Part shown: positions 5,523 to 57,138 of the stretch, piece after piece | Layout: every line of letters starts with the position of its first letter | How positions within the stretch are numbered: position 1 is the stretch's first letter | NCBI GenBank assembly: GCA_023853785.1 | Contig: JAJIRX010000144.1 | Coordinates: forward strand, 1-64,000 | Length of the DNA stretch: 64,000 nt | DNA from: Psilocybe azurescens | Lineage: Eukaryota > Basidiomycota > Agaricomycetes > Agaricales > Agrocybaceae | Direction of reading: 5' to 3' | Notes under the pieces: model-generated | What the model was told of the DNA's origin: nothing | Database searches by the model: none | Seen by the model: the letters and a program-made list of their open reading frames with translations, nothing else | Made by a program: the position numbers and the translations under genes

Positions 5523-5578
5523 GACCGTTAGAAGTAGGGGAATTAAACAACAAAGGGTATGATATTGCTCACTTTATA

Positions 5579-6184
5579 TATGATATACCCTAACGTTCAA
5601 TGTAAATTTGGTTTTGCCTTCAGCGCCAATGTCGGCAGTGTATACTAGTCGGCTTCGACGTCACTGATACAACAACGGCGGCCCCACTCGTATATGCACC
5701 TTGCAACGGTGGCGGGCCAAGGGTCAAGAGGAGGATTTTTATCAATGACGCTACGCAGCTCTAACCAGAATTGGAGGTTCCTTGTCGCGTCTGGTTAGAT
5801 CTGTTTGCTACTAGGCCTGTCAGTTATAGATTTTGGGAGACTAGTTAGTGCGTACTTACGGATCGTAAAGTCTTGCCCATACTTCCTGCCTCTCCTGGTC
5901 TTCGAGGTTTTGTTTTGAGCTTTCAGGAATAGCTCTAACGCTCAGGTCCTCATAGATTTTATAACATTCTACAATGTCGGAAATCTCTAAAGTGCCTTAA
6001 TAGGCTGATAAGGGATCAAGTGACAAAATATCCTATGGTTACTACTTCGTCATACGTCTCCATGTAGCTGTATAATTACCATTTTGGACCAACAACAACC
6101 ACCACATCCCGTGTCATTGAAAGGGTCCTGCTGCTCTCCCTGGCATCGCACAACAGACTAGAAGAGATTTTCGTCATACTCCAT
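5579..6184 (-). CDS. Possible hypothetical gene, at least three exons
   Basis: Protein-like stretches on the minus strand include SLLCDARESSRTLSMTRD near 6150-6095, EISDIVECYKIYEDLSVR near 5980-5930 followed by a good donor (GTAAGTACGC) at about 5865, and NPPLDPWPATVARCIYEWG near 5740-5690. A candidate ATG is at 6184-6182. Exon junctions and the stop could not be fixed, and one frame change seems required. The family is not recognised. It could be the 5' part of a larger unit with the DUF6698-like gene downstream, but a gap with no coding signal separates them. Confidence 0.3.
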
Positions 6185-6243
6185 TGCTGTGGAGACCTCC
6201 GCCGAACCTATAAAGAGTCAAGGTGGTGAGCGAACAACCCAAA

Positions 6244-7020
6244 ATGAGTCGCTCTAACACTCGCCGTATTCCCATTCACAGCTCCACTGCGACCAACCCG
6301 CCCAAACTCAAAGTGCTTCCGGCGCACAATATTCCCTCACCGAATATTCGGGCTCGGACTTTCCACCTTGTAGAGTGGGGAATGACCCGCCCATTTTTGG
6401 CTCTCCTATTACACGGCTGTGTCGCGTCCAGACCCCCTCCTCAGGCAGCTGCAACTGCCATATCGAACGAGAGACCTTCTCAATCACGGCGTCGTCGACA
6501 AGCAAATGCAGGACTTGGACAGTCTAATATCCTCAATACGGTTGTTGCAATCGGACCGGCACCAGATACCAAGGTGGTTCTGCATATCCCTCACGCGTAG
6601 TCATACTGATGATGGGTGCAAATACCAGGGTGATCGTTCTCCTCAGAGAGAACCCTCGTTAAAGCGCCGAGAATCTACAGCCCAAGGCCCTGAGAATGAA
6701 CCCCGGCCGAAGAAATGGCGCGTTACTCTCCGCGACAATGACAATATAAGATGGTTGCAAGAAGAGGTCACTGTTATTAAGGGCAGTCTTGCGGAAGTGG
6801 CTCAGGGGGTCCGAGGGAGGGTAGACAAAGCCATACTAGTACGTTGGCCAGGGTGGAACTCGATATCGGTGATATCAAAGGGAGCATTGACGAGATGACT
6901 TCCGACATCGATGGTATTAAGGATAGTCTGGAGGATATGGCCTATGAGGCGAGGGAGGAAAGGAAAGAGATTAATGATCTGTTAGAAGAACTTCTCTTTG
7001 AAATCCGACAAAGGGAGTGA
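6244..7020 (+). pseudogene. Coiled-coil protein gene, frame-broken
   Basis: A start at 6244 (MSRSNTRRIPIHSS) opens a basic Pro/Ser-rich N-terminus. After frame changes near 6350 and 6500 the reading continues through a basic patch (ENEPRPKKWRVTLRDN) into a long heptad-like region. That region contains LQEEVTVIKGSLAEVAQGV, then from about 6850 IDEMTSDIDGIKDSLEDM, ending EELLFEIRQRE at TGA 7018-7020. The pattern suggests a DNA-binding or scaffold-like protein with a C-terminal coiled coil. I do not recognise the family. At least two single-base indels separate the frames, so it is a pseudogene or affected by assembly errors. Confidence 0.4.
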
Positions 7021-7472
7021 ATTTGTACATACCAGTCCATGTAAAATAAATTCTTTTCTTAATCCACACCCAGTTGCAGCCTCAATTCTCCTTCGACACG
7101 CCAATGCAATTCCATAATCGAAGTAGCCAATAGATTGGCGCGGTATATATCAACAGCACACCGACACCCGCCCAAACGCCTGCAGAACCAACGAAGGAGG
7201 CTTAGATACGGAGGTAGCGGAGACAGCCTGTGAGCTCAAAAGTAAGCAGCTCGTCCTCCTTACTACCCAACGCGCACGTACTCTGATATATTCCACCATC
7301 CCTTCCCATCCTTCAATCCTTAATATTCCTCATTTTGTCTGGATCCGATTTGTATCTGAAGCTTATCAGTTATAGGTTTAGAAACTTGTTGCTACGCACT
7401 TGGGCAAGATCCACCTATACTTTCTTCCCCTCTCGACCTCTGAGTATTGTTTCCAAGAATGGCGCTAACGGT
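7021..7472. other. Intergenic, with a possible membrane-protein tail
   Basis: On the minus strand around 7200-7085 a hydrophobic stretch (AGVWAGVGVLLIYTAPIYW, then LLRLWNCIGVSKEN and a stop) resembles the C-terminal transmembrane end of a protein, but no upstream exon was found. Otherwise I see no feature. Confidence 0.25.
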
Positions 7473-8161
7473 TAGACCGTCGTAGCCAAAGTTCTATATT
7501 TCTCTAGTAGTAAACTAACTCCAAGTTGTTATTCTTTACTTACGTTTTTATTGACGAAATTTCCTTATTTCTGACTTATTACTTATAACAACTCATAAAA
7601 TTACTTTAGTTACTATTGCATGGAAGTGGCGAGTGAAGAGGGCGGCAGACGATGGTGGTCGTTCAGAAGAGGGAGGAAAGGCGTGCGAAAATAATAATCG
7701 GAGGACGAAGTCGCGCCGAATTGAGGATCCTCGGGTAATCGGCTATTACTTACCCGAGGATCCTCGATTCAGCGCGACTTTGTCCAATGGTTTCCATTTC
7801 TCACGCCTTTCCACTCTCTTCTGAACCATCACCATGGTTAATTGCGCTCTCCCTCATCATCCACCAAGCCTCGTAAGTCATTTTCTTTGTGTCAGTAGTT
7901 AGTATATAGGAAGCCGTAATCCCATTCGAATGAAATAAATTGAGATTGAGTGATATAACATGAAATAAAACCCAAAAAATCGCCGTACACTGTAGAGATG
8001 TACAGCTGGGTATCCGTGCTACTTTGCGAAGTACTGATACTATGGGTTGGCGTTGCACAGACGGTGTTTCTAACACACAGAAAATGAGTTTACTAATGAA
8101 TTGCTCAGCCAGAAACGCCGTCAAGATACCATGAATCGCGTACGTTCTATTCCAGTCCAAA
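7473..8161. mobile_element. Fold-back repeat, copy B (inverted)
   Basis: Reverse complement of copy A (1807-2495), with scattered substitutions. It carries the same hairpin at 7709-7779 with two mismatches between the arms. Its outer end (8161) lies only ~27 bp before the first recognisable coding sequence of the Spt5-like gene, so it may have replaced or displaced the 5' end of that gene. No target-site duplication was recognised. Confidence 0.75.
7709..7779. repeat. 30-bp-arm hairpin in copy B
   Basis: Arms 7709-7738 and 7750-7779 pair over 30 bases with two mismatches, around an 11-base loop that is the complement of the copy A loop. The central GAGGATCCTC palindrome is kept in both arms. 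Confidence 0.9.
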
Positions 8162-13199: not shown

Positions 13200-14942
13200 A
13201 TTCTGGAAGAGGACGAGATCGACTAGGATATCGCCATTGGCGATGATGTGATACCTATCAGTGCGAATTATACCTACTTGTCCCAAAAGGAATCCTCGAA
13301 TCTATATTGAGAACAGATTCATGTTCCTCTCGTCATGCCGAATATCAAAGTCTCTACGCAGAAAAAATGATTCAATGCGCCAAATGTGACATCGAGGAGG
13401 TATATAGGACCTAGGGTATGCACGTTAAAAGATATATCCTTCGCAGCATGGCCACCACGGTCCGACCGATGATCCCATTATAGCCATCTCCCATGATTTT
13501 CAAGTTATGGCCGGTGCTTTAGATCTATGCAAGCATAGTATTTGAGAGATGGATGCTTCTCTCATCACCACTGATCTCTAGCGGTACGCTCTGGCCACAG
13601 GTGAAAGTTCTAGACCAAAACGCCCGGTGGTCCGTGTGCGGATATTCTTCGGCTAACTCTGCCTTAAGCTTTTGAGCGCTAGAGCACTATTTTAGTTCAA
13701 GTAGCCGGAAAATGTGAAGATTCCTGTCACTTTCCATGCCATATTCTAAGAGAAGAGAAAGTATGTTCAATATTACATATTCTAAGAGAAAAAAGGTAGT
13801 CGATGCCAACCAGAAGTCGCACAAGTACTGTGCAAGACTGGGGATTTCCACGATCGCCTCCGGTACTTGAAGAGGAGAGAAGATAACACTTGAATTAGCT
13901 TCCCGTGTCTCTCGCAGGACACCCACAGTATTTTGGTACTCACGGGCTGTCACGCTGTCTATCGGATGTTCTCTGACACTCAATCGGCTTGCACCGGCGT
14001 TCCCTCTCTATCCCGGCTGATTGAGTGCCACTTCGCAGACGGGTATTGTTTATCCACGAACGCATGGTGTGTACGCATCCAATATATATAATCGTGCTCA
14101 TATGGCTCAAATCAGAAGACGCTGAAATTATGCATCTTTTCCACAAAGATCTAATGTCATATATAGCCAAACACATTCTGATTTTCAGGTTCTTCATCAT
14201 TATGATATTTGATTTGTGCGTTATCTTATTTAGAGTATTAGAATACTGTTCTTATCGTATATTTTCTTTCTACAAAGTAAGAAGTTCTGCAAGCGGGTAC
14301 ATACTACGTTTATAGCTTGTGGTGTTGAAGAAATTGGTACACTTAGTACGCACAGTACTGAGTGAGGACTCCGCACACTAAAAACGCTCGGGACTTGTAA
14401 TGACGATCTATTGATTGAAAGTTTCCTCTGGACCCCGAACAATGTGAAGTGGGTCTTCAAGGCGGGCATACGCGGTTATAAGTCGGGTTAACATCCTCTG
14501 TAGGAACGAATGAGATCTAGATCCTGGTTTATCTTTTGCTGTTTCTGCTTCTCGCTATGTGTGGGCTCTTATACATCACGTTTGGAATTTCTTGCTCAGA
14601 GATTTCAAGGCCTACTGCTAGTAGTATGGCTGGCAACAAAAAGTATGCATCTTCAGGATTTTGAATTTAAACATTGAATGAATTTGATACAGTAGTATTC
14701 AAACCAAAGAGAGACCTCAATCAACTCCGCAATACTCGGGGTCGACTTGGTTAATTATATTACAGCTCCGGTTACTTTCATAGCCTGTTTTGCTAATAGT
14801 TCTACTCGCATCAGACTTGAACTCATTTCTAGAGCTGCTTGGTACTGTGTAACGAGTTAATGCCAACGATCCAAAATACCACCGGAGATATCGCAATTTT
14901 GCATGAGCCATTCGGTAGTATGCCGTTAGGGCGCTGTTGGTC

Positions 14943-14985
14943 TTCAACGAATATATCGAATATTCGTTGAACGAAAGGTATATAA
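14943..14985 (+). promoter_or_regulatory. Promoter palindrome and TATA box, gene 1
   Basis: TTCAACGAATA (14943-14953) and its exact reverse complement TATTCGTTGAA (14961-14971) are separated by 7 bases that include part of the inner palindrome CGAATATTCG. A TATATAA box follows at 14979-14985, 126 bases before the ATG. This is the arrangement expected of a dimeric activator or repressor site next to a core promoter. Confidence 0.7.
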
Positions 14986-15110
14986 GCAGTGTGGTTTCGT
15001 TGAGTTCTCTTCAAGCTATCCATTCGATATCTACCAACATACAGGTGATTCAGAAGTTTCTCACGTTGTTGTTATACACTGCTCAATCCAAATTTATTAG
15101 AAAATCTATC

Positions 15111-15541
15111 ATGCAGTTGTCTTTCACCACCGTCTTCGCCACTATCATCGCCTTTGCCGGGGTCACCAGCGCTGCTCCAAGCGGTGAAATTACCAACAGC
15201 ACATTGACACCTCTTGCTGCACCATTTGGAATCAACTATGGCCAGACCCAGAATAACGACGTCGCCTGGGTCGACGGACAGTCCAAATGTAACTTCGTCA
15301 TCGTTGGACCCGTAAGTGGCAGGCCGCACTATCAAACGAGGGTTTTAACTAATTTGTTGGGCATTAGAACGGCCCGAACCCGTGTGGCCGACCGTTCAAT
15401 ATCAACGGACAGAGTGGATTCACATTCGAAGGATGTGGTGGTGCACTTTCGATCAACCAGAACGGGCAGTTCTTTGCCAGTTGCGGTAACTTGAAGGAGG
15501 GAGATGTATGCGGTGTGCACAGTGAATTCCACTGCATTTGA
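15111..15541 (+). CDS. Small secreted six-cysteine protein, copy 1
   Basis: Exon 1 is 15111-15311 and exon 2 is 15368-15541. The 56-base intron 15312-15367 starts GTAAGT and ends ATTAG, in phase 0. The product has 124 residues. It starts with a typical signal peptide (MQLSFTTVFATIIAFAGV, likely cleaved after TSA at about residue 21), then has a Thr/Asn-rich stretch with one N-S-T sequon (residue 29) and a compact domain with six cysteines at 60, 73, 90, 106, 115 and 123, enough for three disulphides. Glycine and asparagine are frequent and no charge cluster or membrane segment follows the signal. It is probably exported to the wall or medium. I do not recognise the family. The start is chosen because the signal peptide begins there and a TATA box lies upstream. 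Confidence 0.85.
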
Positions 15542-18097
15542 GTGCTTTCAAATACAATCCTACATCAACAATAACCATACTCGTAAAATATATACAAACC
15601 AAAGACACAACTGTCTTGATTCATGTGTCGCGTAGTATAATGTGGCAACAATGGTCATGACAATAAACGTTTATCAAGTATCACGACATGGTTGGTCAGC
15701 TGAAGTTTGACGTTCGCGTACCATGTCGGGCAAAATTCTGCTCGCAGTGGGCAGACTTTCAGCCAGTGGCGAAACGATAAGCCCCTATTTTGCAAAGATC
15801 CTCGTGACGTCGTCGTCATTTGGGCTCTCCGAGGAGTCCGAGCCTCTGCGTCCCAACGCACCCCCGCTCGGGAGTAAACCTAGATGTCCATCGAAATGAA
15901 GCTTTTTGCTATTTATACATACTGCGATGTATGGTTTGAAACGATATCGGCTTCTCTCAATTTGTGCACGAATTAGTATGTATTACTGTTGTCGTATTAT
16001 CTTCGATAATGTGCTTACCATTGGATCTTTCAGATGATCAAGTATTTCTTACTAGGACACGATCGGAGAAGGGGGGAAATACGATATGCGTAGTCATAGC
16101 AATCGCCCGGAGAAGCAAAGAGGATAACTTTGTCATTGGTTTTTGTACAATGAATCTTAAATTTATCGATTAAAGATGCAAATTGAATAAGACTATGAAA
16201 AGGGTCAAGAACAGAATAGATTAGCGTTTCAAGAACTTTGACGACGATAATCATAATCGATTTTCGGAGAGTATGTTCAAGATGAGGCCCCCGCAACAGT
16301 CGACATCTTTTCGTTTTCTTCTTTCCAGCCATCGCATTGTATCAGCCATTAAGTTTGAGTCCAGACAAGGATGAGATCGACTGCGATACCTTGTGATACC
16401 TATCAGGGCGCTTGGTACTTACTTGGCCCAAAAGGAATCCTCGAATCCATATCGAGAATAGATTCATGTGCCTCTCTTCGTGGCGAATATGGAATTGGCT
16501 TTGCGGAAAGGATGCTACAATTTCCGAAAATGTCATCGAGCAGGTAGATAGGACATAAGGGTATGCACGTTAAGAGATATATCCTTCTCAGCATGGCCAC
16601 CACGGTCCGACCGATGATCCCATTACAGCGGTCTCCATGATTTTCAAGTTATGGCCGGTGCCTTAGATGTATACCAGGATATTATTTAAGAGATAGATGA
16701 TTCTCTCATCACCACTGATCTCTAGCGGTACGCTCTGGCCACAGGTGAACGTTCTAGGCCAAAACGCCCGGTGATCCGTGTGCGGATATTCTGCGGCTAA
16801 CTCTACCTTAAGCTTTTGAGCGCTAGATCACTATTTTAGTTCAAGTAGCCGGAAAATGTGAAGATTCCTGTCACCTTCCATGCGGTATTCTAAGAGAAGA
16901 GAAATTATGTCCAATATCACATATTCTAAGAGAAAGAAAAATAGTCGATGCCAACCAGAAGTCGCACAAGTACTATGCAAGACTTGGGTTTTCCACGATC
17001 ACCTCCGGTACTTGAAGAGAACTGAAGATAACACTCGAATTAGCTTCCCGTGACTCTCGCAGCACACCCACAGTATTGTGGCCTTCACGGGCTGTCACGC
17101 TGTCTATCGGATGTTCTCTGACATTCAATCGGCTTGCACCGGCGTTCCCTGTCTGTCCCAGCTGCCTGAGTGCCGCTTCGCAGACGGGTATTGTTTATCC
17201 ATGAACGCATGGTGTCCTCCAATAATATATAATCGCGCTCATATGGCCCAAATCAGAAGACGCTGAAACTATGCATCTTTTCTATGCCTTCCTGCAAAGA
17301 TCTAATGTCATATATATATAGCCCAACGCTTTCTGATTTTCAGTGTCTTTATCACTATGAGATTTGATTTGTGCCTTATCCAGTGTTGGAAGATTTATAG
17401 TACCGTTCTTATCGTACATTTTCTTTCTACAAAGTAAGACGTTCTGCAAAGGTGTACATACTACGCTCATAGCTTGTGGTGTTGAAGAAATCGGTACATG
17501 TAGTACGCACAGTACTGAGTGAGGACTCTGCACACTAAAAACCGGTCGGGACTTGTAATGACGCTCTATTCATGGAAAGTTTCTCCTGGAGCCCGAACAA
17601 TGCGAAGTAGGTCTTCGTGCCAGGCATACGCGGTTATAAGTCAGGTTAACATCCTCCGGAGGAATGAATGAGATCTAGAGGATTGTTTATCTTTTGCTGT
17701 GTCTGCTTCTGGCTACGTGTGGGCACTCATGCACCACGTTTGGAACTTTTGCTCAGAGATCATAAGGTCTACTGCTAGTACTGTGACTGGCAACAAAAGT
17801 ATACATCTTCAGGATTTTGAATTTGAAGATTGAATGAATTTGATGCAGTAGTATTCAAACCAAAGAGAGACCTCAATCAACTCCGCATTACTCGGGGTGG
17901 ACTTGGTTAATTATATTACAGATCCGGCTACTTTATAGCCTGTTTTGCGAATAGTTGTACTGGCATCAAATATGAACTCGTTTGTAGAGCTGCTTGGTAG
18001 TGTGTAACGAATGAATGCCGACGCTCCCAAATACCACCGGAGATATCGCAATTTTGCATGAGCCATTCAGTAGTATGCCGTTAGGGCGCTGTTGGTC

Positions 18098-18140
18098 TTC
18101 AACGAATATATCGAATATTCGTTGAACGAAAGGTATATAA
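18098..18140 (+). promoter_or_regulatory. Promoter palindrome and TATA box, gene 2
   Basis: Identical to the gene 1 element: arms 18098-18108 and 18116-18126 (11-bp perfect inverted repeat, 7-base spacer), TATATAA at 18134-18140, ATG 126 bases further on. Confidence 0.7.
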
Positions 18141-18266
18141 GCAGCGTGGTTTTCGCTGAGTTCTCTTCAAGCTATCCATTCGATATCTACCAACATACAG
18201 GTACATCAGGGTCTTCTCACCTTGTCGTTATACACTGCTCATTCAGAATTTATTAGAATTTCTATC

Positions 18267-18697
18267 ATGCAGTTGTCTGTCACCACCGTCTTCGCCACCA
18301 TCATCGCCTTTGCCGGGGTCACCAGCGCTGCTCCAAGCGGTGAAATTACCAACAGCACATTGACACCTCTTGCTGCACCATTTGGAATCAACTATGGCCA
18401 GACCCAGAATAACGACGTCGCCTGGGTCGACGGACAGTCCAAATGTAACTTCGTCATCGTTGGACCCGTAAGTGGCAGGCCGCACTATCAAACGAGGGTT
18501 TTAACTAATTTGTTGGGCATTAGAACGGCCCGAACCCGTGTGGCCGACCGTTCAATATCAACGGACAGAGTGGATTCACATTCGAAGGATGTGGTGGTGC
18601 ACTTTCGATCAACCAGAACGGGCAGTTCTTTGCCAGTTGCGGTAACTTGAAGGAGGGAGATGTATGCGGTGTGCACAGTGAATTCCACTGCATTTGA
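18267..18697 (+). CDS. Small secreted six-cysteine protein, copy 2
   Basis: Exons 18267-18467 and 18524-18697, intron 18468-18523. The product has 124 residues and differs from copy 1 at residue 5 (V for F) in the signal peptide. The mature region, the intron and more than 100 bases of 3' flank look the same as in copy 1. All six cysteines are kept. The near identity over exons, intron and 3' flank, against larger differences further upstream, points to recent duplication or gene conversion between copies 1 and 2. Confidence 0.85.
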
Positions 18698-21145
18698 GTG
18701 CTTTCAAATACAATCCTACATCAACAATAACCATACTCGTAAAATATATACAAACCAAAGACACAACTGTCTTGATTCATGTGTCGCGTAGTATAATGTG
18801 GCAACAATGGTCATGACAATAAACGTTTATCCAAGATCCCGACACGGTTCTTCAACTGAAGTTTGAGGATCGCGTACGAGGTCGGGCAAAATTTCGTCGC
18901 AGTTGGCAGACTTTCTGAGACACTTGACTGACATGGGAGATGGCAGACTTTCAGGCAGTGGCGAAACGGTGAGCCCCTATTTTGTAAAGAACCTCATAAC
19001 GTTGTCGTCATATGTGCTCTCCGAAGAGTCCGTGCCGGGAGTAAACCAAAATAAGCATCGAAATGAAGCTTTCTGGTATTTAAAAGTACTTCATGGTATG
19101 GTCCTAAAAGATATCGGCTTCATTTTAGTAGGTTGTGCGGGTCGTATGGTTCCGGCGCAAGACAAATTCTTAGTTGGTTATGGTGATCTGGGACACCTCT
19201 GTGGCATGCAGGCATGTTAAAACTGGGTACTCTGTAGCATCGTTCACATGCAACCTCAATTTGGGCACTAATTAGTATGTATTACTGTCGTCGTATCGTC
19301 TTTGATGATGTGCTTACCATTCGAGCTTTCAGATGATCATGTGAAGATCTTTTTGTTTTCTTCTTTCCAGCCATCGCATTGTATTAATCATCAACCTTGA
19401 GCCCAGACAAGGATGAGATCGACTGGGATACCTTATGATACCTATCAGGGGCTTGGTACTTACTGGGCCCAAAAAGGAATGTTGGAATACATAACGAGCA
19501 TCATGTACCTCTCTTCATGACGAATGTGAAATTCGCTTTGCATAAATGATGGTTCAATTCTCCGAAAATGACATTGAGGAGATAGATAGGACATAAGGGT
19601 ATGCACGTTAAAAGGTATATCCTTGTCAGCATGGCCGCCACAGCCCGAACGAGGATCCCATTACGGCCATCTCCAAGATTTGCAAGTAATGGCCGGTGCC
19701 TTAGATATATACCAGGATATTATTTAAAACGTAGAAGCTTCTATCATCACCACTTATATCTAGCGGTACGCTCTGGCCACACGTAAACGTTCCAGACCAA
19801 AACGCCCGGTGATCCGTGTGCGGATATTCTTCGGCTAACTCTGCCTCAAACCTTTGAGCGCTTGAGCACTATTTTAGTTCAAGTAGCCGGAAAATGTGAA
19901 GATTCCTGTCACTTTCCATGCCCTATTCTAAGAGAAGAGAAAGTATATTCAATATTACATATTCTAAGAGAAAGAAAAGTAGTCGATGCCAACCAGAAGT
20001 AGCACAAGTACTTTGCAAGACTTTGGTATTCCGCGATCGCCTCCGGTACTTGAAGAGAAGGGAAGATAACACTCGAATTAGCTTCCCGTGTCTCTCGCAG
20101 CACACCCACAGTATTCTGCCCTTCACGAGCTGTCACGCTGTCGATCGGATGTTCTCTGACACTCAATCGGCTTGCACCGGCGTTCGCTGTGTGTCCCAGC
20201 TGACGGAGTGCCGCTTCGCAGACGGGTATTTTTATCCATGAACGCATGGTGTGTACGCATCCAATGAAATATAATCGCGCTCATATGGCTCAAATGAGAC
20301 GACGCTGAAACTATGTATTTTTTCTATGCCTTCCTGCAAAGATCTAATGTCATATATAGACAAACACATTCTGATTTTCAGTATGCTGATCATTATGAGA
20401 TTTGATTTGTGCCTTATCTTATTTAGAGTATTAGAGTACCGTTCTTACCGTCCATTTCCTTTCTCCAAGGTAAGACGTTCTGCAAGGAAGTATATACTAC
20501 GCTTATAGCTTGTGGTGTTGAAGAAATCGGTATATGTAGTGCGCACAGTACTGAGTGATGACTCTGCACACTAAAAAGCTCTTGGGACTTGTAATGACGA
20601 TCTATTCATTAAAAGGTTCCTCTGGAGCCCGAACAATGCGAAATGGGTCTTCAAGCCGGGCATATGCGGTCATAGTCGGGTTAACATGCTCCGGAAGAAC
20701 GGATGACATCTAGATCCTGGTTTATCTTTTGCTGTGTCTGCTTCTTGCTACGTGTGGGCTCTCATGCATCACGTTTGGCATTGCTTGCTCAGAGATCCTA
20801 AGGCCTACTGCTAGTAGTGTGCTAGTAGTGTGACTGGCAACAAAAAGTATACATCTTCAGGATTTTGAATTTAAAGATTGAATGAATTTGATGCAGTAGT
20901 ATTCAAATAAAAGTGAGACCTCAATCAATTCCGCATTACTCGGGGTCGACTTGGTTAATTATATTGCAGCTCCGGTTACTTTCATAGCCTGTTTTGTGAA
21001 TAGTTATACTGGCATCAGACTTGAACTCGCTTCTGAGCAGCTTGGTAGTGTGTAACTAATCAATGTCAACGCTCCCAAATACCACCGGAGATATCGCAAT
21101 TTTGCATGAACCATGCGGTAGTATGCCGTTAAGGCGCTTTTGGTC

Positions 21146-21188
21146 TTCAACGAAAGTATCGAATATTCGTTGAACGAAAGGTATATAA
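21146..21188 (+). promoter_or_regulatory. Promoter palindrome and TATA box, gene 3
   Basis: Arms shortened to 9 bp: TTCAACGAA (21146-21154) and TTCGTTGAA (21166-21174). The outer arm changed from ATA to AG while the inner CGAATATTCG is intact. TATATAA lies at 21182-21188. Confidence 0.65.
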
Positions 21189-21314
21189 GCAGTGTTATTT
21201 TTGCTGAGTCCTCTTCAAGCTATCCATTCGATATCTACCAACACACAGGTAAATGCGAGGCTTTTCACCTTATCGTTATACACTGCTCAATCCGAATTTA
21301 TTAGAAAGTCTATC

Positions 21315-21745
21315 ATGCAGTTGTCTTTCACCACCGTCTTCGCCACCATCATCGCCATTGCAGGGGTGACCAGCGCTGCTCCTAGCGGCGAAATTACCAA
21401 CAGCACATTGACTCCTCTTGCTGCACCGTTTGGAATCAACTATGGCCAGACCCAGAATAACGACGTCGCCTGGGTCGACGGTCAGTCCAAATGTAACTTT
21501 GTCGTCATTGGACCCGTAAGTTGCAGTCCCCAGTATCAAACGATGGTTTTAACTGATTTGTTGATCGTTAGAACGGCCCGAACCCGTGTGGGCGACCGTT
21601 CAGTATCAACGGAGAGAGTGGATTCACATTCGAAGGATGTGGTGGATCGCTTTGGATCGACCTGAACGGGCAGTTCTTTGCCAGTTGCGGTAACTTGAAG
21701 GAGGCAGATGTGTGTGGTGTCCACAGTGAATTCCACTGTATTTGA
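21315..21745 (+). CDS. Small secreted six-cysteine protein, copy 3
   Basis: Exons 21315-21515 and 21572-21745, intron 21516-21571 (56 bases, GTAAGT..GTTAG). The product has 124 residues and the same signal peptide type (IIAIAGV). The second exon is of a different subtype from copies 1 and 2: Ser for Asn near residue 78, Glu for Gln near 82, a SLWIDL segment where copies 1 and 2 read ALSINQ, and Ala for Gly after KE. All six cysteines, their spacing and the C-terminal FHCI are unchanged, as expected for a disulphide-rich scaffold with variable surface loops. Confidence 0.85.
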
Positions 21746-22263
21746 TGGCTTTCAGATCCAATCCGCCAGCAACAATAACCATACTCGTAATATATATATA
21801 CATCAGAGACATGGCTGTCTTGATTCATGTGTCGCGTAGTATAATGTGGCGACAATGGTCATGACAATAAACGCTTTTCAAGTAGCACGATTCGGTTCGT
21901 CTGGTGAAGTTTGAGGTTCGCGTACCAGGTTGGGCAAAATTCTGCTATTTATAATCACTGCAATATATGGTTTGAAACGATATCGGATTCGTTTTAGTAG
22001 GTTGTGTGGTTCGCATAGTTCCGGCGCAAGACAAGTTCTTAGTTGAGTATGCTGTAGTATGTAGCTCCTACAGGTAAGTATCTGGTACACCTGTGGTATG
22101 CAGGCATGTTAACACTGGGTACTCTGTGGCATCGTTCAGATGCAACCTCAATTTGTGCACTAATTAGTATGTATTACTCTCGTCGTATTATCTTGAGTCC
22201 AGAAAAGGATGAGCTCGACTGGGATACCTTGTGATACCTATCAGGGCGCTTGTTACTTACTTG

Positions 22264-22386
22264 GTGTAAGCATGGCGGCTCACCACTTCTTATACGGTCC
22301 GAGCAACTAGATGCCAAAGTATATTTATAGCGCGATTTTGGTGTAACGGTTACGGCTTGTCGGACTGGCATGACTAGCTTACGCTC
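22264..22386. mobile_element. Short insertion (MITE-like) in unit 3
   Basis: A ~123-bp segment starts GTGTAAGC and ends GCTTACGCTC. It is absent from the corresponding place in units 1 and 2, where the sequence runs straight from TACTTACTTGG into CCCAAAAGG. The ends form a short imperfect inverted repeat. The interior holds GTAACGGTTAC. No ORF. Confidence 0.6.
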
Positions 22387-24042
22387 GGCCCAAAAAGGAA
22401 TCTTCGAATCCATATCGAGAATAGTTTCATGTGCCTCTCTTCATGACGAATATGGAATCGCCATGATGCTTCAATTATCCGAAAATGTGATCGAGGAGGT
22501 AGATAGGACCAAAGGGTATGCACGTTAAAAGATATATCCTTCTCAGCATGGCCGCCACAGCCCGAACGAGGATCCCATTACAGCGGTCTCCATGATTTTC
22601 AAGTAATGGCCGGTGCCTTAGATGTATATGCCGGCATATTATTTGAGAGATAGATACTTCTCTCATTACCACTGATCTCTAGCGGTACGCTTTGGCCACA
22701 CGTAAACGTTCCAGACCAAAACGCCCGGTGGTCCGTGTGCGGATATTCTTCGGCTAACTCTGCCTTAAGCTTTTGAGCGCTAGAGCACTATTTTAGTCCA
22801 AGTAGCCGGAAAATGTGAAGATTTCTGTCACTTTCCATGCCCTATTCTAAGAGAAGAGAAAGTATGTTCAATATTACATTATCTAAGAGAAATGAAAGCA
22901 GACGGTGCCAACCAGAAGTAGCACAAGTACTATGCAAGACTTGCGTTTTCCGCGATCGCCTACGGTACTTGAAGAGAACTGAAGATCTCGAATTATCTTC
23001 CCGTGTCTCTCGCAGCACACTCACAGTATTCTGGTATTCACGGGCTGTCACGCTGTCGATCGGATGTTCTCTGACACTCAATCGGCTTGCACCGGCGTTC
23101 CCTCTCTATCCCAGATGACTGTGCGGCATCGCAGACGGATATTTTTATCCATGAATGCATGGTGTGTACGGATCCAATAATATATAATCGCTCTGATATG
23201 ACTCAAATCAGAAGACGCTGAAAATATGCATCTTTTGTACAAAGATCTAATTACATATATAGCCAAACACATCCTGATTTGCCGTTTCCTCATCATTATG
23301 AGATTTGATTTGTGCCTTATTCTATGTTGGAAGATTTAGAGTACCATTCTTATCGTGCATTTACTTTCTACAAAGTAAGACGTTCTGCAAAGGGGTACAT
23401 ACTACGCTTATAGCTTGTGGTGTTGAAGAAATTGGTACATGTAGAGCGCACAATACTGAGTGAGGCCTCTGCGCACTAAAAAAAGCGCTTGGGACTTGTA
23501 ATGTCGATCTATTTATTAAAAGTTCCTTCTGGAGCCCGAACAATGCGAAGTGGGTTCTCAAGCCGGGCACACGCGGTAAATCAGGTTAACATCCTCTGGG
23601 GGAACGAATGAGATCTAGATCCTGGTTTATCATTTGCTCTGTCTGCTTCTCGCTATGTGTGGGCTTTCATGCATCACGTTTGGAATTGGTTGCTCAGAGA
23701 TCCTAAGGCCTACTGCTAGTAGTATGGCTGGCAACAAAATGTATGTATCTTCAAGATTTTTGAATTCAAAAATTGAATGAATTTTGATGCAGTAGTATTC
23801 AAACCAAACAGAGACCTGCATCAACTCCGCATTACTCGGGGTGGACTTGGTTAATTATATCACAGCTCCGGCTACTTTCATAGCCTGTGTTGTGAATAGT
23901 TATACTGGCATCAAACTTGAACTCGTTTGTAGAGCTGCTTGGTAGTGTGTAACAAATGAATGCCGACGCTCCCAAATACCACAGGAGATATCGCAATTTT
24001 GCATGAGCCATGCGGTAGTATGCCGTTAGGGCATTGTTGGTC

Positions 24043-24085
24043 TTCAACGAAAATATCGAATATTCGTTGAACGAAAGGTATATAA
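24043..24085 (+). promoter_or_regulatory. Promoter palindrome and TATA box, gene 4
   Basis: Arms TTCAACGAA (24043-24051) and TTCGTTGAA (24063-24071) enclose AATATCGAATA. TATATAA lies at 24079-24085. Confidence 0.65.
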
Positions 24086-24210
24086 GCAGTGTGGTTTCGT
24101 TGAGTTTTCTTCAAGCTATCCATTCGATATCTACCAACATACAGGTACATCAAAGGCTTCTCATCTTGTCGTTATACATTGCTCAATCCGAATTTATCAG
24201 ACATTTTATC

Positions 24211-24641
24211 ATGCAGTTGTCTTTCGCCGCCGTCTTTGCCACCATCATCGCCTTTGCCGGTGTCACCAGCGCAGCTCCTAGCGGTGAAATTACCAACAGC
24301 ACATTGACACCTCTTGCTGCACCGTTTGGAATCAACTATGGCCAGACCCAGAATAACGACGTTGCGTGGGTCGACGGTCAGTCCAAATGTAACTTCGTCG
24401 TCATTGGACCCGTAAGTTGCAGTCCGCGGTATCAAACGAGGGTTTTAACTAATTTGTTGGGCATTAGAACGGCCCGAACCCGTGTGGGCGACCGTTCAGT
24501 ATCAACGGAGAGAGTGGATTCACATTCGAAGGATGTGGTGGATCGCTTTGGATCGACCTGAACGGGCAGTTCTTTGCCAGCTGCGGTAACTTGAAGGAGG
24601 CAGATGTGTGTGGTGTGCACAGTGAATTCCACTGCATTTGA
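24211..24641 (+). CDS. Small secreted six-cysteine protein, copy 4
   Basis: Exons 24211-24411 and 24468-24641, intron 24412-24467. The product has 124 residues, a signal peptide beginning MQLSFAAVFA, and the exon-2 subtype of copies 3 and 5. The intron is a mosaic: its first half (GTTGCAGTCCGCGG) resembles copies 3 and 5, while its second half (AATTTGTTGGGCATTAG) equals copies 1 and 2. The six cysteines are kept. The reading frame looks intact. Confidence 0.85.
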
Positions 24642-25211
24642 GGGTTTTCAAATCCAATCCGACAGCAACAATAACCATATTCGTAAAATCTATATACATC
24701 AAAGAGACAACTGTCTTGATTCATGTGCCGCGTAGTATAATATGTGGTAACAATGGTCATGACAATAAACGTTTATCAAGTATCACGACATGGTTCGTCT
24801 GGTGAAGTTTGAGGTTCGCGTACCAGGTCGGGCAAAATTCTGCTATTTATAAATACTGCAATGTATGGTTTGACACGATATCGGCTTGATTTTGGTAGGT
24901 TGTGCGGGTCACATAGTTCCGGCGCAAGACAAATTCTTAGTTGAGTATGACGATCTTAGACAAGGCGCCTCATTGAACCATCTCAAGCCCGAGTATGTTG
25001 TAGTATGTAGCTCCTACAGGTAAGTATCTGGTACACCTCTGTGATATGCAGGCATGTTCACACTGCGCACTCTGTAGCATCGTTTGGATACAACCTCAAT
25101 TTGTGCACTCATCAGTATGTATTACTCTCGTCGTATTATCTTGAGTCCAGACAAGGATGAGATCGACTGGGATACCTCGTGATTCCTATCAGGGCGCTTG
25201 GTACTTACTTG

Positions 25212-25334
25212 GTGTAAGCCTGGCGGGTCACCACTTCATATACGGTCCGAGCAACTAGATGCCAAAGTATATTTATAGCGCCATTTTGTTGTAACGGTTA
25301 CGGCTTGTCGGACTGGCATGACTAGCTCACACTT
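25212..25334. mobile_element. Short insertion (MITE-like) in unit 4
   Basis: Same element as at 22264-22386, at the same place in the repeat unit. It runs from GTGTAAGCC to AGCTCACACTT. Its presence only in units 3 and 4 shows that these units share a more recent ancestor with each other than with units 1 and 2. Confidence 0.6.
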
Positions 25335-26996
25335 GGCCCAAAAGGAATCTTGGAATCCATATCGAGAATAGATTCATGTGCCTCTCTTCATGACGAATAT
25401 GGAATCGCCATGATGCTTCGATTATCCGAAAATGTGATCGTGGAGGTAGATAGGACCAAAGGGTATGCACGTTAAAAGATATATCCTTCTCAGCATGGCC
25501 GCCACAGCCCGAACGAGGATCCCATTACGGCCATCTCCATGATTTTCAAGTTGTGGCCGGTGCCTTAGATGTATACCAGCATATTATTTAAAGATAGACG
25601 TTTCTCTCATCACCACTAATCTCTAGCGGTACGCTCTGGCCACAGGTGAACGTTCTAGGCCAAAACACCCGGTGGTCCGTGTGCGGATATTGTTCGGCTA
25701 ACTCTGCCTGAAGCTTTTGAGCGCTTGAGCACTATTTTAGTCCAAGTAGCCGGAAAATTTAAAGATTCATGTCACCTTCCATGCCCTATTCTGAGAGAAG
25801 AGAAAGTATGTTCAATATTAAATATTCTAAGAGAAATGAAAGCAGTTGGTGCCAACCAGAAGTAGCACAAGTACCATGCAAGACTTGCGTTTTCCGCGAT
25901 CGCCTACGGTACTTGAAAAGAAGTGAAGATAACACTCGAATTAGCTTCCCGTGTCTCTCGCAGCACACACATAGTATTCTGGCCTTCACGGGCTGTCACG
26001 CTGTCGATCGGATGTTCTCTGACACTCAATCGGCTTGCACCGGCGTTCTCTCTATCTCAGCTGACTGAGTGCCGCTTTGCAGACGGGTATTTTTTATCCA
26101 TGAAGGCATGGTGTGTACGCATCCAATAATACATAATCGCACTCATATGGCTCAAATCAGAAGACGCTGAAACTATGCATCTTTTCTATGCCTTCCTGCA
26201 AAGATATAATGTCATATATAGACAAACACATTCTGGTTTTCAATGTCCTCATCATTATGAGATTTGATTTGTACCTTATCCCGTGTTGGAAGATTGTGAT
26301 TACTGTTCTTATCGTACATTTTCTGTCAAAAAGTAAGACGTTTTGCAAGGGGTACATACCACGCTTATAGCTTGTGGTGTTGAAGAAATCGGTACATGTA
26401 GTGCGCACAGTACTGAGTGAGGACTATGCACACTAAACACGCTCGGGACTTGTAATGACGATCTATTCATTGAAAGGTTCCTCTGGAGCCCGGACAATGC
26501 GAAGTGGGTCTTCAAGCCGGGCATATGCGGTCATAGTCGGGTTGACATCCTCCGGAGGAACAGATGAGATGTAGATCCTGGTTTATCTTTAGCTGTGTCT
26601 GCTTCTGGCTACATGCGGGCTCTCATGCATCACGTTTGGAACTATTGCTCAGAGATCCTACGGTCTCCAGCTAGTAGTGTGGCTGGCAACAAAAAGTATG
26701 TATGTTCAGGATTTTTGAATTTAAAGATTGAATGAATTTGATGCAGTAGTATTCAAACCAAAGAGAGACCTCAATCAACTCCGCATTACTCCGGGTGGGC
26801 TTGGTTAATTATATCACAGCTCCGGCTACTTTCATAGCCTGTTTTGTGAATGGTTATACTGGCAACACACTTGAACTCGTTTGTAGAGCTGCTTGGTAGT
26901 GTGTACCAAATGAATGCCGACGCTCCCAAATACCACTGGAGATATCGCAATTTTACATGAGCCATGCGGTAGTGTGCCGTTAGGGCACCGTTGGTC

Positions 26997-27039
26997 TTCA
27001 ACGAAAATATCGAATATTCGTTGAACGAAAGGTATATAA
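26997..27039 (+). promoter_or_regulatory. Promoter palindrome and TATA box, gene 5
   Basis: Arms TTCAACGAA (26997-27005) and TTCGTTGAA (27017-27025), TATATAA at 27033-27039. The promoter is intact even though the gene below has lost its start codon. Confidence 0.65.
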
Positions 27040-27164
27040 GCAGTGTGGTTTCGTTGAGTTTTCTTCAAGCTATCCATCCGATATCCACCAACATACAGGT
27101 ACATCAGAGACTTCTTATCTTGTCGTTATACATTGCTCATTCCGAATTTATTAGAAATTGTATC

Positions 27165-27595
27165 ATACAGTTGTCTTTCACCACCGTCTTCGCCACCATC
27201 GTCGCCTTTGCTGGGGTCACCAGCGCTGCTCCTAGCGGTGGAATTACCAACAGCACATTGACACCTCTTGCTGCACCGTTTGGAATCAACTATGGCCAGA
27301 CCCAGAATAACGACGTTGCGTGGGTCGACGGTCAGTCCAAATGTAACTTCGTCGTCATTGGACCCGTAAGTAGCAGTCCGCAGTATCAAACGAGGGTTTT
27401 AACTGATTTGTTGATCGTTAGAACGGCCCGAACCCGTGTGGGCGACCGTTCAGTATCAACGGAGAGAGTGGATTCACATTCGAAGGATGTGGTGGATCGC
27501 TTTGGATCGACCTGAACGGGCAGTTCTTTGCCAGTTGCGGTAACTTGAAGGAGGCAGATGTGTGTGGTGTGCACAGCGAATTCCACTGCATTTGA
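27165..27595 (+). pseudogene. Secreted six-cysteine protein, copy 5, start codon lost
   Basis: Exon-equivalent 27165-27365, intron 27366-27421 (GTAAGT..GTTAG), exon 27422-27595. The coding frame, splice sites and all six cysteines are intact, but the codon that is ATG in the four other copies is ATA (27165-27167) and no other Met occurs before the first cysteine. An in-frame ATG exists upstream at 26991, but it lies before the TATA box, and translation from it would bury the signal peptide about 60 residues inside. So copy 5 is either silenced, uses a non-AUG start, or the base is an assembly error. The mature region is nearly identical to copy 3. Confidence 0.75.
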
Positions 27596-27907
27596 GGGGC
27601 TTTCAGATCAAATCCGACAGCGACAATAACCATACTCGTAAAATATATATACATCAGAGACACAACTGTCTTGATTCGTCTGTCGCGTAGTATAATGTGG
27701 CGACAACTGTCATGACAATAAACGTTTATCAAGTATCACGACACGGTTGGTCAACTGAAGTTTGAGGTTCGTGTACCAATTCGGGCAAGATTTGGTCGCA
27801 GTGAGCAGACTTTGTAAGAAACCTGACGGACATGGGAGATGGCAGACTTTCAGCCAGTGACGAAACGGTGAGCCCATATTTTGCAACTCTCCAAAAATCC
27901 ATTATCT

Positions 27908-28425
27908 TCCTCAAAGTTCTTGAAACGCTAATATATTCTGTTCTTGATCCATTTTCATAGTCTTATTCAAATCACATTTTTAATCAATAACTTTAAGTTT
28001 CATTGTACAAAAACAAGTGACAAAGTTATCCTCTTTGCTTCTCCGGGCGATTGCTAAGACTACGCATATGGTTTTTCCTCCTCGTCTCCAGTCTCATCCT
28101 AGTAAGAAATTCTTGATCATCTGACAGCTCCAATGGTAAGCACATTATCGAAGACAATACGACGAGAGTAATACATATTAATTAGTGCACAAATTGATGT
28201 TGCATCTGAACAATGCTACAGAGTACCCAGTGTTAACATGCCTGCATACCACAGAGGTGTACCGGATAATTACCTGTAAAAGTTACAAACTACAACATAC
28301 TCAGGCTTGCGAAGGTTCAAATGGGAGCCTTGGCTGAGATCGTCATACTCAACTAAGAACTTGTCTTGCGCCGGAACCATGCGACCTCTTCGGAGAGCCC
28401 AAATGACGACGACATCACGAGGATC
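27908..28425. repeat. Inverted segment within the tandem array
   Basis: 27908-28205 is the reverse complement of the sequence around 15955-16235 in unit 1, for example CGACGAGAGTAATACATATT and AAAGTTATCCTCTTTGCTTC. 28206-28425 is the reverse complement of the 3' spacer seen at about 24880-25085 and 15790-15840. From about 28430 the normal orientation resumes (CGACATCTTTTCGTTTTCTT). One inversion inside the last unit explains this. Confidence 0.8.
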
Positions 28426-29134
28426 TTATGTTCAAAGATGGAGCCCCCCACAAAAGTCGACATCTTTTCGTTTTCTTCTTTCCTGCCATCGCACTGCATT
28501 AAACATTAATCTTGAGTCCAGACAAGGATGAGCTCGACTGGGATATCTTGTGATACCTATCAGGGCGCTTGGTACTTACTTGGCCCAAAAGGAATCTTGG
28601 AATCCATATCGAGAATAGATTCATGTGCCTCTCTTCATGACGAATATGGAATTGGCTTTGCGGAAATGCTGGTTCAATTCTCCGAAAATGTCATTTAGGA
28701 GACAGATAGGACGTAAAGGTATGCACGTCAAAAGATATGCCCTCTCAGCATGGCCACCACAGCCCGACCGAGGATCCCATTACAGCCGGCTCTGTCTTTT
28801 TCGAGTTCTGATCGGTGGCTTAGATGTATGTTAGCATAATACTTAAAAGAGAGATACTTCTCTCGTTACTACTGAGCTCTAACGGTACGCTCTGGCCACA
28901 GGTGAACGTTTGAACACACTGAACGCAAGGCACAGGTACTCAGGAACAATCAATGAGCTTACATAATAGTTGCCCATCCTTGGACAGTTCTGCGACGGCG
29001 CCACAGCCTCATTTACTGTGCTTGTCCCTGGCTTCATCGTCGTGATTCCATCCACCCAGCCAGCTACTCACATAAAAGACTGCCGCAGAAGTGAGCGCCA
29101 GTCACACACTAAGACTTAGATCCCCCATCCCACC

Positions 29135-32100
29135 ATGTCTCGATACCCAGAGGTTTGTCATTTACAGTCCTTTCTCATGGTGATGATGACGCTCATTCAT
29201 GTACAGGCAGATGAGGCGCAGCACAGGCACTACAACGACGGGTACTCGCCCTATCCAGCCACGACCACGCCCAACCCATACGACCAGTACGATGCCCAGC
29301 CCAATCCATACGACCGCCCTCAGCAGCAGCAGGGAGGCGGCTACGGCGCCGGCACCCCGCTCGCAGACCCCTTCAACCCCGTCTCGCACAACCCATACTC
29401 CTCGCCCCCACCAGGCCCCCGCCGTCGACCATGTACCCGCCGCCGCCCCCGCCGCCCGCGGACCTCGGCTACGGCGCGTACCGCGCACCCTCCATCGTGC
29501 ACCCCGCCTCGCCGCCGCACCACGCCATGTCCCCCGCGCCGTCCCTCAACCCGCTCCTCGCGCCTCCTGGGCCGTCGAGGACGCCCGGGCTGCAGCCGCA
29601 GTACAACCGCTCTGCGTACGACATGAGCAATGCGGACGACGATATGATGATGGATACCGGCGATATGCCGCTGCTGCGCCGCGACCCGTCGTCGTCGTTG
29701 TCCATACTCGGCGGCGCGCAGCAGTTCCCTGGGGGGTTTGAGGGAGGATGGGGAGGGATGTTGGCCGGGGACGATAGGTCGGAGAATAATATTCGATATG
29801 GGCGGATCCCACAGAGAGTGCCGCGGCGGTACAAGACGGTCAAGAAAGTCGAGTGAGTCTTCATCGTTGGCGTCAGATTTTGTGTGCGTTGTTTCATCTC
29901 CTCCCACCCCGCAGACTCTTCCACGGCAACTTTGTGCTCGACAACGCCGTCCCCAAAAGCTGCTCGACATGTGCGCGAACCGCACCGAGCGCGAGTTCAC
30001 CCACATGCGGTACTCCGCCGCGACATGCGACCCCAACAACTTCAAAGACTCGGGCTTCACGCTGCGGCAGGTGCACTACGACCCGCCGCGGCGCACCGAG
30101 CTCTTCATCGTCATGACGATGTACAACGAGGACGAGGAGCTCTTCTGCCGCACGATGCACGGCGTCATCAAGAACGTCGCGCACCTGTGCAAGCGCGACC
30201 GCAGCAAGACGTGGGGCAAGGACGGGTGGAAGAAGGTCGTGGTGTGCATCGTGAGCGACGGGCGCGGCAAGATCAACGCGCGCACGCTGAGCGTCATCGC
30301 GGCGATGGGCGCGTATCAGGAGGGCGTGGCGAAGACGAAGATCGGGAACCAGGACGTGACGGCGCATATTTACGAGTATACCACGCAGAGTGCGTTGCTT
30401 CTATTCTCTCGTTCCGTGCAACAACTCTCTACTGATCGATCACCCTTCCATTTCATGTCGTTCCATTCCGCCCCCACAGTCTCCCGTCACCCCCTCGCTC
30501 AAGATCGAGGGCGCCGAAAAGGGCACCGTCCCCGTGCAGGTCATCTTCTGCCTCAAGGAGAAGAACCAGAAGAAGATCAACTCGCACCGCTGGTTCTTCA
30601 ACGCCTTCGGCGCGCTCCTGCAGCCCAACGTGTGCGTGCTGCTCGACGTCGGCACGATGCCCGGCCCGACGTCGATATACCACCTGTGGAAGGCGTTCGA
30701 CATTAACTCGAACGTCGGCGGCGCGTGCGGCGAGATCGTCGCGCTGAAGGGCAAGTATGGCCGGAATCTGATCAATCCACTGGGTGCGTTTTGTGTGCTC
30801 TTTTTTTTGGGGGGGGATAACAGTGACAGTGTGCTGACCTGGATGTGATGTTTTCTTTTTGTGTTCGTTTGATTAGTTGCTGCGCAGAATTTCGAGTATA
30901 AGATGTCGAATATCCTGGATAAGCCTCTGTTAGTACTTGTTGTTTTATCCTCTTCCTTAGTTAACTCTTTGCTGATCTCTCGTCTCCCTTATTGCCACCT
31001 CACTTCTTTCCTGGACGGACTAATTTCTCTCTCGCTCTCTCCGCTCCCTCACGCATTTGTCCTGTCTCCCTCCCCCTATCCCTCACTCTCTTTCCTGTAA
31101 ATTCCCTCACCCACTCTCCTGTAATATCTCTCCTGCAACTCCTCTCCCTCCCCCCATTCTCCCACCCCCTTTCCCTTTCCCCTCATATAAAACCCGAAAC
31201 CTCCCCCACCCACAAAAAATCACAGTGAGTCCGTCTTCGGCTACATCACCGTCCTGCCCGGCGCATTCAGCGCGTACCGCTACATCGCGCTGCAGAACGA
31301 CGCCCAGGGCGAGGGCCCGCTGCAGAAGTATTTCTTGGGGGAGACTATGGTGGGTTCTTCGGTTTTTTTTTTGTTGTTTTTTTTTTTTTTGAAGGGGGAG
31401 AGGGAGGGGGGAGAGGTGGAGCTTCGTGTTGTTCTCTTCTGTGTTTTCCACTCCCTCTTTCTTTCTTGCTTTCTTCTTGATTTGCCCTGTCTTTGTTTCG
31501 CCGGGTTTTTTTCTCGCCTCGCGTGCTTAACTTTCTCCCCGGATGTCTTCACTCCGCTTTCGTTTCTCTTGATTTCCTTTTCCTTTGCCCTGTGGGTTCC
31601 TTTACGCCGGCCGCTTTCGTTTTATCTCGTCTTCGTTTTTTATCTCCTTCTTTTCTTCTTTCTTCCTTCCCTTCTTGTTTCCCTTTCACCTAACTTTTGG
31701 TTTCGCTTGTCTGTCGTTCACCCCGTGTGCCTCCCTCTTTCTTTCCGTGTTTCATTTGCCCCTGCTCTCCTTTTGTGCCTATTTGCGCCTTGCGTCTTTC
31801 GTTTCGCTCATTTTCCGTTCCGCCTGTTTTGCTCTCCTCTTTCGGACTATCCCTCTTTCTTCTTTCTTCTTCCTTCTTCTCTATTTTCTTTCCTATCTTT
31901 TACTTTATTTTTTGTTCGGTGTTGAAAGAGCGTTTACTGATTGGTGTTACCTTCATGCTCGTCTACAGCACGGAGCCGGAGCCGATATTTTCACTGCGAA
32001 CATGTATCTCGCCGAAGATCGAGTAAGTCGCCATCATCATCCTTCTTATAGCTTCAAAGCCTAGCAAAGTCGTGCACTCGCTGATGCGGCTTGTTATTAT

Positions 32101-49522: not shown

Positions 49523-49659
49523 TGCGCACGTGTGCCCGGCATTGGCCGATCGGCATGACAACCATCAAATGAGCGACCCCAACCTTTCTTCTGACTACCA
49601 CCACCACCACCTTGTCAGTCAGAGCCAGGCGACAGCCAACCCGATGTGACAGAGGATGA

Positions 49660-50278
49660 CAACAACTGTGACGGCCATGCCAATGACAGCAACAACAAGG
49701 ACCTGGACGAGGGGCGACCGCAAACACAACAACAAGGACCCGGACGTAGGTGAGGACAACCCAGAGCGAGGACAAGGGGCAAGGGGCAAGGGCAAGGGCA
49801 AGGGCAAGGGCAAGGGTGGCTACCATGAGGACGAGGACAGTGGCAGCGGCGGCGATGAGGACAACAGGGATGGGGATGGGGACGGACGGAGTACGAGGAC
49901 GGCGAGGACAGATGGCGGCCATGAGGACAGGGGCGACAGCTGCAACAGCGACAGCGACAAGGGCGGCAAGGATGGACGATGGCGATGAGGACAGGGACGA
50001 CAGCTGCAACAGCGACAAGGACAGCAAGGGCGGACGATGGCCACGAGGACAGGGACCAGGACCGGGATGACAGCTGCGACAGCGGCGGAGACAGGGACAG
50101 CGGCTGCGACGGGGATGGAGACAATGAGGACGAGGATGAGGGCGGGGACAACGGCTGCGACAACGATGAGGACAGACAGGGACAACGGGGACGAGGACAA
50201 GGATGCGGACAACGGCTGCGACAACGACAAGGACACAGATGGCGGCTGTGACAGCAATGAGAATGGACAGGGATGAGG

Positions 50279-50338
<60 letters not shown>

Positions 50339-55231: not shown

Positions 55232-55235
55232 GACA

Positions 55236-57130: not shown

Positions 57131-57138
57131 CATCATCA

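What the first reader, a model, noticed from the sequence alone, without database searches (positions are those of the whole stretch)
13200..28913. Five-copy tandem array of a small secreted six-cysteine protein
Each ~3-kb unit contains one 124-residue protein with a signal peptide and six cysteines at fixed positions (60, 73, 90, 106, 115, 123), one 56-bp phase-0 intron and its own promoter. Loops vary between copies, cysteines do not. The pattern is typical of effector, antimicrobial or wall-protein families under dosage or diversifying selection. I do not recognise the fold, so it could be an undescribed family.
Basis: partly seen in the sequence, partly recalled or inferred. Interest (0 to 1): 0.8.

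Follow-up and report, generated by a model that had tools for sequence, protein, structure and literature searches.

The report
Repeated small secreted mushroom protein genes
A Psilocybe-like mushroom genome carries five head-to-tail copies of a gene for nearly the same small, probably exported, cysteine-rich protein, from a little family found here only in Psilocybe, Mycena and unnamed environmental samples, and natural selection keeps the protein the same rather than changing it.

Summary
The array is real: five 2.9-3.2 kb units plus a sixth fragment; each of the five carries one gene body with a 56-bp phase-0 intron, a signal-like start and six cysteines at 60, 73, 90, 106, 115, 123. Copy 5 has lost its start codon. 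Copies do not diversify: mature proteins of copies 1 and 2 are identical, as are 3 and 4; two types, nine residues apart, lie under purifying selection (copies 3-4: 8 silent, 0 replacement changes). Copies 1 and 2 share an identical 532-bp tract within units about 10% diverged: gene conversion or assembly error. Three searches gave 29 relatives, 24 named, all Psilocybe or Mycena; no Pfam family fits. AlphaFold2 gives a confident eight-strand all-beta domain with no convincing PDB match; Alt a 1 and PevD1 are weak, tied resemblances. Best reading: a dosage array of an undescribed, narrowly distributed small secreted cysteine-rich protein, evolving by birth, death and conversion. Molecular function is inferred only. 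Ordinary in kind; the family, perhaps the fold, is undescribed.

The parts
13240..16391 (+). Repeat unit 1 (phase chosen by me)
16392..19435 (+). Repeat unit 2
19436..22379 (+). Repeat unit 3
22380..25326 (+). Repeat unit 4
25327..28548 (+). Repeat unit 5; part of its spacer (27886-28427) is inverted relative to unit 1
28549..28910 (+). Partial sixth unit (upstream part only, no gene)
   Evidence: (D13)
15111..15541 (+). Copy 1 gene: exon 15111-15311, intron 15312-15367, exon 15368-15541; 124 aa, type A
18267..18697 (+). Copy 2 gene: exon 18267-18467, intron 18468-18523, exon 18524-18697; mature protein identical to copy 1
21315..21745 (+). Copy 3 gene: exon 21315-21515, intron 21516-21571, exon 21572-21745; type B
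24211..24641 (+). Copy 4 gene: exon 24211-24411, intron 24412-24467, exon 24468-24641; mature protein identical to copy 3
27165..27595 (+). Copy 5 gene body: exon 27165-27365, intron 27366-27421, exon 27422-27595; first codon ATA, no usable in-frame ATG near, probably not made as a secreted protein
14979..14986 (+). TATATAAG of copy 1; the same at -132 or -133 in the 4 other copies and in the C616 relative
15045..15100 (+). Possible 5'-UTR intron of copy 1 (56 bp, GT...TTAG); a 56-bp equivalent (GT...TTAG or TCAG) can be read in all five copies and C616; other splits are possible and there is no transcript
15144..15675 (+). 532-bp tract identical to 18300-18831 of unit 2, in units whose upstream parts differ by about 10%
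18300..18831 (+). Partner of the identical tract

Best explanation
A ~3-kb segment holding one gene and its promoter was multiplied head to tail in a Psilocybe-like agaric, most simply by unequal crossing over, and the copies have exchanged sequence since. The product is one small secreted protein: the signal peptide is removed near residue 21, a short disordered tail with one N-glycosylation sequon (residues 29-31) follows, then a compact eight-strand all-beta domain with six conserved cysteines (three disulfides inferred, pairing unknown). Selection keeps the mature protein constant, so the array supplies amount, with two protein types nine residues apart, rather than variety. The protein most likely acts outside the hypha as a stable binding barrel (ligand not known), in a role shared by Psilocybe and Mycena. 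Shown: gene structure, copies, conservation, purifying selection, predicted fold. Inferred: unequal crossing over, secretion, disulfides, dosage, binding role.
For: Copies and gene model. The unit was found only in the array and once more on C616, with nothing shared outside the unit in the 20 kb of C616 compared with the window, so it is not a widely dispersed repeat. Silent over replacement changes in the mature region: c3-c4 8/66 against 0/240, c1-c3 13/66 against 9/240, Fisher one-sided p 3.3e-6 and 7.5e-5. 103 of 103 residues from residue 22 identical between copies 3 and 4 and P. cyanescens P0001. All six Cys invariant in 16 of 16 rows of A5. Model pLDDT 91-96 in every ten-residue block beyond residue 40, eight strands. 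Broken siblings fit birth and death: copy 5 start lost; C616 frame broken in exon 2 with the conserved intron; C797 without ATG at the expected place and with an in-frame stop; C500 and C762 intact.
Against: No expression data. Dosage is not shown; copy number itself may be neutral. Copies 1 and 2 now being identical is as much the mark of one exchange as of selection. The model does not say what is bound; fold matches are weak. The 532-bp identity, and the lost start of copy 5, could be assembly or polishing errors. Signal peptide, sequon and disulfides were judged by eye, with no predictor run.
Confidence: 0.6

Rival explanations
1. It is a remote basidiomycete relative of the Alt a 1 (AA1) proteins: a secreted beta-barrel that binds small molecules or host proteins and affects other organisms. 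(Compatible with the array reading; the odds given are not exclusive.)
Confidence: 0.15
2. It is a defence protein of the mycelium or fruit body against bacteria, rival fungi, nematodes or insects, made in quantity from the array.
For: Small, secreted, disulfide-rich proteins in amplified arrays are often defensive (general knowledge, no call). Psilocybe and Mycena live on wood, litter or dung (recalled).
Against: Defence proteins often diversify; here the mature sequence is held constant. No match to a described antimicrobial or toxin family at a believable score (the only row for copy 1, PF10379 nec1, is at E 0.046, below its cut-off and over residues 7-35, mostly the signal-peptide region).
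Confidence: 0.25
3. It is a wall or surface protein, or a glycan-binding lectin, as the automatic UniRef label 'Cyanovirin-N domain-containing' on relative P0008 suggests.
Against: No Cyanovirin-N family match in P0008 or 17 other members at E up to 10 (weak matches may be filtered). The lectin rows are at chance level. The neighbour is one gene and may be chance.
Confidence: 0.2
4. The array is a by-product of rearrangement in a repeat-rich region and has no selected purpose as an array.
For: Inverted spacer segment in unit 5; one of five copies without a start codon and two broken relatives elsewhere; a dispersed inverted-repeat element and a copia-type gag in the same window.
Against: Purifying selection between copies 3 and 4, and 3 and 5, suggests that copies stayed in use after duplication.
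Confidence: 0.3

Closest known systems
Hypothetical proteins CVT25_007782 (P0001) of Psilocybe cyanescens, named 'SSCRP protein' in UniRef, and JR316_0013200 (P0002) of P. cubensis
   Same: Full-length relatives, 90% and 76% identical to copy 1, 124 aa; P0001 is identical from residue 22 on to copies 3 and 4
   Different: Whether they lie in an array there could not be seen; P0001 sits on a 5.6-kb contig
Mycena relatives (16 of 29 database proteins)
   Different: 42-55% identical to P0001 in A4, longer loops in M. filopes; array structure not seen
Alt a 1 / PevD1 (AA1, PF16541)
   Same: Small fungal all-beta protein; weak structural overlap
   Different: No sequence match, fewer predicted strands; other fungal phylum and other number of Cys (the last two recalled)
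Small secreted cysteine-rich proteins (SSCPs) of fungi in general
   Same: Size, signal-like start, conserved Cys, local amplification
   Different: A loose class by description, not a homologous family

Membership tests
Small secreted cysteine-rich proteins (descriptive class) | Short protein with a secretion signal and several conserved Cys | tested here: met
   124 aa; hydrophobic N-terminus ending SA-AP read by eye, no predictor; six Cys invariant in 16 of 16 rows of A5
Small secreted cysteine-rich proteins (descriptive class) | Actually secreted | not testable with these tools
   no secretome data
AA1 / Alt a 1 family (PF16541) | Sequence match to the curated profile | tested here: not met
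   no AltA1 hit for copy 1 or for 18 of 18 members at E up to 10; HMMER filters drop most very weak matches
AA1 / Alt a 1 family (PF16541) | Alt a 1 beta-barrel fold | tested here: inconclusive
Cyanovirin-N (label of P0008) | Sequence match to the curated profile | tested here: not met
   P0008 and 17 others: none at E up to 10, weak matches may be filtered
Cyanovirin-N (label of P0008) | Cyanovirin fold | tested here: inconclusive
   general fold searches only; no direct comparison with a cyanovirin
Hydrophobin, cerato-platanin, Hce2, KP4-like and other curated fungal secreted families (names recalled) | Sequence match to a Pfam profile | tested here: not met
   the only rows at E up to 10 were PF10379 nec1 (E 0.046, below cut-off) for copy 1 and SapA (E 0.25, 1 of 18 members)

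The most novel reading that the evidence does not exclude
The family is a fold not yet seen in solved structures: a disulfide-tied eight-strand barrel confined to a few agaric lineages, kept as a dosage array whose copies are homogenised by gene conversion over the gene while promoters and spacers drift apart, so that copies making one protein could be expressed at different stages.
Probability: 0.15. Interest if true: 0.5.

Novelty: new member of a known kind. Interest (0 to 1): 0.32.

Why it matters
It gives a compact, testable case: a small uncharacterised agaric protein family with a confident predicted structure, strong conservation of the mature protein, and a five-unit array in which gene bodies are alike while upstream regions differ by about 10%. 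If expressed strongly it would be a main secreted product of a Psilocybe-like species with unknown activity. In this case the common expectation that amplified small secreted proteins diversify does not hold.

Tried and rejected
Pfam with copy 1, ten relatives and the 18 of A4, NCBIfam with 4: nothing believable. PDB by sequence, single and profile: only MAK16 at E 1.6, 0.52 and 0.45, taken as chance. Foldseek: best rows at E 1.2 and 1.0 in the PDB with two models (50 of 147 and 50 of 149 rows shown) and 0.36 among viral models with one. In the second VIA list (50 entries shown) PevD1 is absent, and no cyanovirin is in the rows shown; neither absence excludes kinship. AltA1 family in the own genome: nothing, but the control genomes did not ring either, so this shows nothing. 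Rfam on the whole window: 0 hits at gathering scores. A second gene in the unit: not tested beyond the ORF list; spacer frames such as 19918-20241 look repeat-derived to me. Diversifying selection: rejected. Dispersed transposon carrying the gene: rejected, as the unit was found only in C140 and once in C616 (the search gives lower bounds). Papers, listings only: 'Psilocybe' + 'small secreted protein' + 'cysteine-rich' 0 papers; Mycena + small secreted proteins + expanded + gene family 1; SSCRP + basidiomycete 5; Mycena + genome expansion + effector 3; Psilocybe + secretome 17, 8 listed; Psilocybe + tandem duplication + genome 1; Alt a 1 + structure + disulfide bonds + AA1-like 0. None of those listed is on this family by title or abstract start; their full texts were not read.

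Rows dropped: of 29 proteins, A4 used 18 and A5 16. Left out of A4: P0003, P0005, P0006, P0012, P0015 and P0024-P0027 (fragments, intron read-through or odd C-termini), and P0028 and P0029, found later; A5 left out P0014 and P0018 too. Apparent Cys losses in dropped rows (e.g. P0005, P0015) are thus not in the counts; those records look truncated or mis-annotated. One search scored only the 7995 candidates sharing most words.

Full report
Observation. Direct-repeat analysis shows five units with start-to-start spacing 2896-3156 bp for the gene block and a partial sixth at 28549-28910. In each of the five units an exon of 201 bp, a 56-bp GTAAGT...TTAG intron in phase 0 and a second exon give 124 codons with six Cys at 60, 73, 90, 106, 115 and 123. 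All five have TATATAAG 132-133 bp before the start and a possible 56-bp intron in the 5' leader, as has the C616 relative. Copy 5 has ATA in place of the start; there is no in-frame ATG in the next 260 bases nor upstream before a stop.

What varies. In the mature region (codons 23-124) copies 1 and 2 have 0 differences of any kind; copies 3 and 4 have 8 silent and 0 replacement changes; copies 3 and 5 have 8 and 1; copies 1 and 3 have 13 and 9. Fisher one-sided p for excess of silent change: 3.3e-6, 2.5e-5, 7.5e-5, 7.2e-4 and 2.2e-4 for the pairs 3-4, 3-5, 1-3, 1-4 and 1-C616 (five pairs chosen, counts rounded to whole sites, pairs not independent). There are two mature types, A (copies 1, 2) and B (3, 4, 5), apart at residues 64, 65, 78, 82, 93, 95, 97, 98 and 112; copy 5 has one more change at 26. 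The signal region varies too, at residues 5, 6, 7, 13 and 15. Type B copies 3 and 4 equal P. cyanescens P0001 at 103 of 103 residues from residue 22. This is constraint, not diversification.

Conversion. Upstream non-coding sequence (unit 1: 13439-14950) differs by 9.6-11.4% in all ten pairs of units, a star-like pattern. Against that, copies 1 and 2 are identical for 532 bases (15144-15675 and 18300-18831), from codon 12 into the 3' flank, with 19 mismatched columns between 14990 and 15143 and mismatches again from 15676. Among the other 14 pairs (C616 included) the longest identical run is 176. The simplest reading is a recent gene-conversion tract; an assembly or polishing error is the alternative. 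The copy 4 intron agrees with copy 3 at sites of its 5' half and with copies 1 and 2 at sites of its 3' half, which also fits exchange. Silent divergence between types A and B (dS 0.19-0.23) exceeds the upstream divergence (about 0.10), so the two types may be older than the present units; I did not test this.

The unit in the genome. The assembly has 70.4 Mb in 937 contigs. The unit was found in the array and once on contig C616 (103895-106943), with no similarity to the window beyond the unit within the 20 kb of C616 compared. Protein search shows nine loci of the family: five here, C616, C500, C762 and C797. C500 and C762 give intact 127- and 129-residue proteins with one intron at the equivalent place; the C616 frame breaks in exon 2 with the conserved intron; C797 lacks ATG at the expected place and has an in-frame stop near the end. 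So 6 of 9 loci look intact. Close similarity to P. cyanescens proteins suggests that the host belongs near that species (inference).

The family. Three searches gave 29 proteins: 8 Psilocybe, 16 Mycena and 5 unnamed environmental. The search needs shared five-residue words, and one search scored only part of its candidates, so more distant relatives may be missed. A4 (18 of 29) has C60, C73, C90 and C106 invariant and C115 and C123 at 90% or more (P0018 is a partial record); A5 (16 of 29) has all six invariant. The most conserved stretch, by eye, is PFGIN-G...N-VAWV-GQS-CNNV. The environmental records P0024, P0026, P0027 and P0029 leave the family sequence just where the window gene's intron starts, which hints at a shared intron position. 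No Pfam family fits.

Mechanism. Shown: gene structure, near-identity of mature proteins, purifying selection, invariant Cys, confident beta model. Inferred: export, tail glycosylation (N-S-T at 29-31, read by eye), three disulfides, and use outside the hypha as a stable binding barrel. The array then gives amount and, through diverged upstream regions, perhaps separate timing. Which ligand or partner is bound cannot be said from these data. The confidences of the best explanation and its rivals are not exclusive: the rivals on role could each be true of the same array.

Novelty. Tandem arrays of small secreted Cys-rich proteins are a familiar kind of thing in fungi (general knowledge); this one has a protein family that I found undescribed in Pfam and in the paper listings searched, with no convincing structural relative. 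New member of a known kind, with a small chance of a new fold.

Noticed in passing
1807-8161: Inverted-repeat element: arms of about 690 bp (blocks 96-99% complementary) with about 5 kb between them. Nine contigs, this one included, show a +/- pair of arms, eight at about 5.6 kb and C645 at about 7.2 kb; looks like a mobile element with long terminal inverted repeats.
   Followed up: partly
29651-31925: Chitin synthase gene right after the array: Chitin_synth_1 and Chitin_synth_1N in 29651-30706, a further piece matching solved chitin synthases in 31191-31925. That frame then runs into pyrimidine-rich sequence (AT skew -0.34 and -0.25 at 30-34 kb), perhaps a long intron or an insertion.
   Followed up: partly
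27886-28427: Spacer segment of unit 5 inverted relative to unit 1 and to the C616 unit.
   Followed up: partly
55207-60761: Minus-strand frames that look like pieces of a copia-type retrotransposon (by eye); the one Pfam hit is Retrotran_gag_2 in 60117-60761. Observed only.
   Followed up: no
49407-50964: Long overlapping minus-strand frames (494 and 449 aa) of low-complexity repeats, hardly genes.
   Followed up: no
L031 (C797:30770-31097, minus): A family relative broken here, while P. cyanescens has an intact similar protein, P0008.
   Followed up: partly
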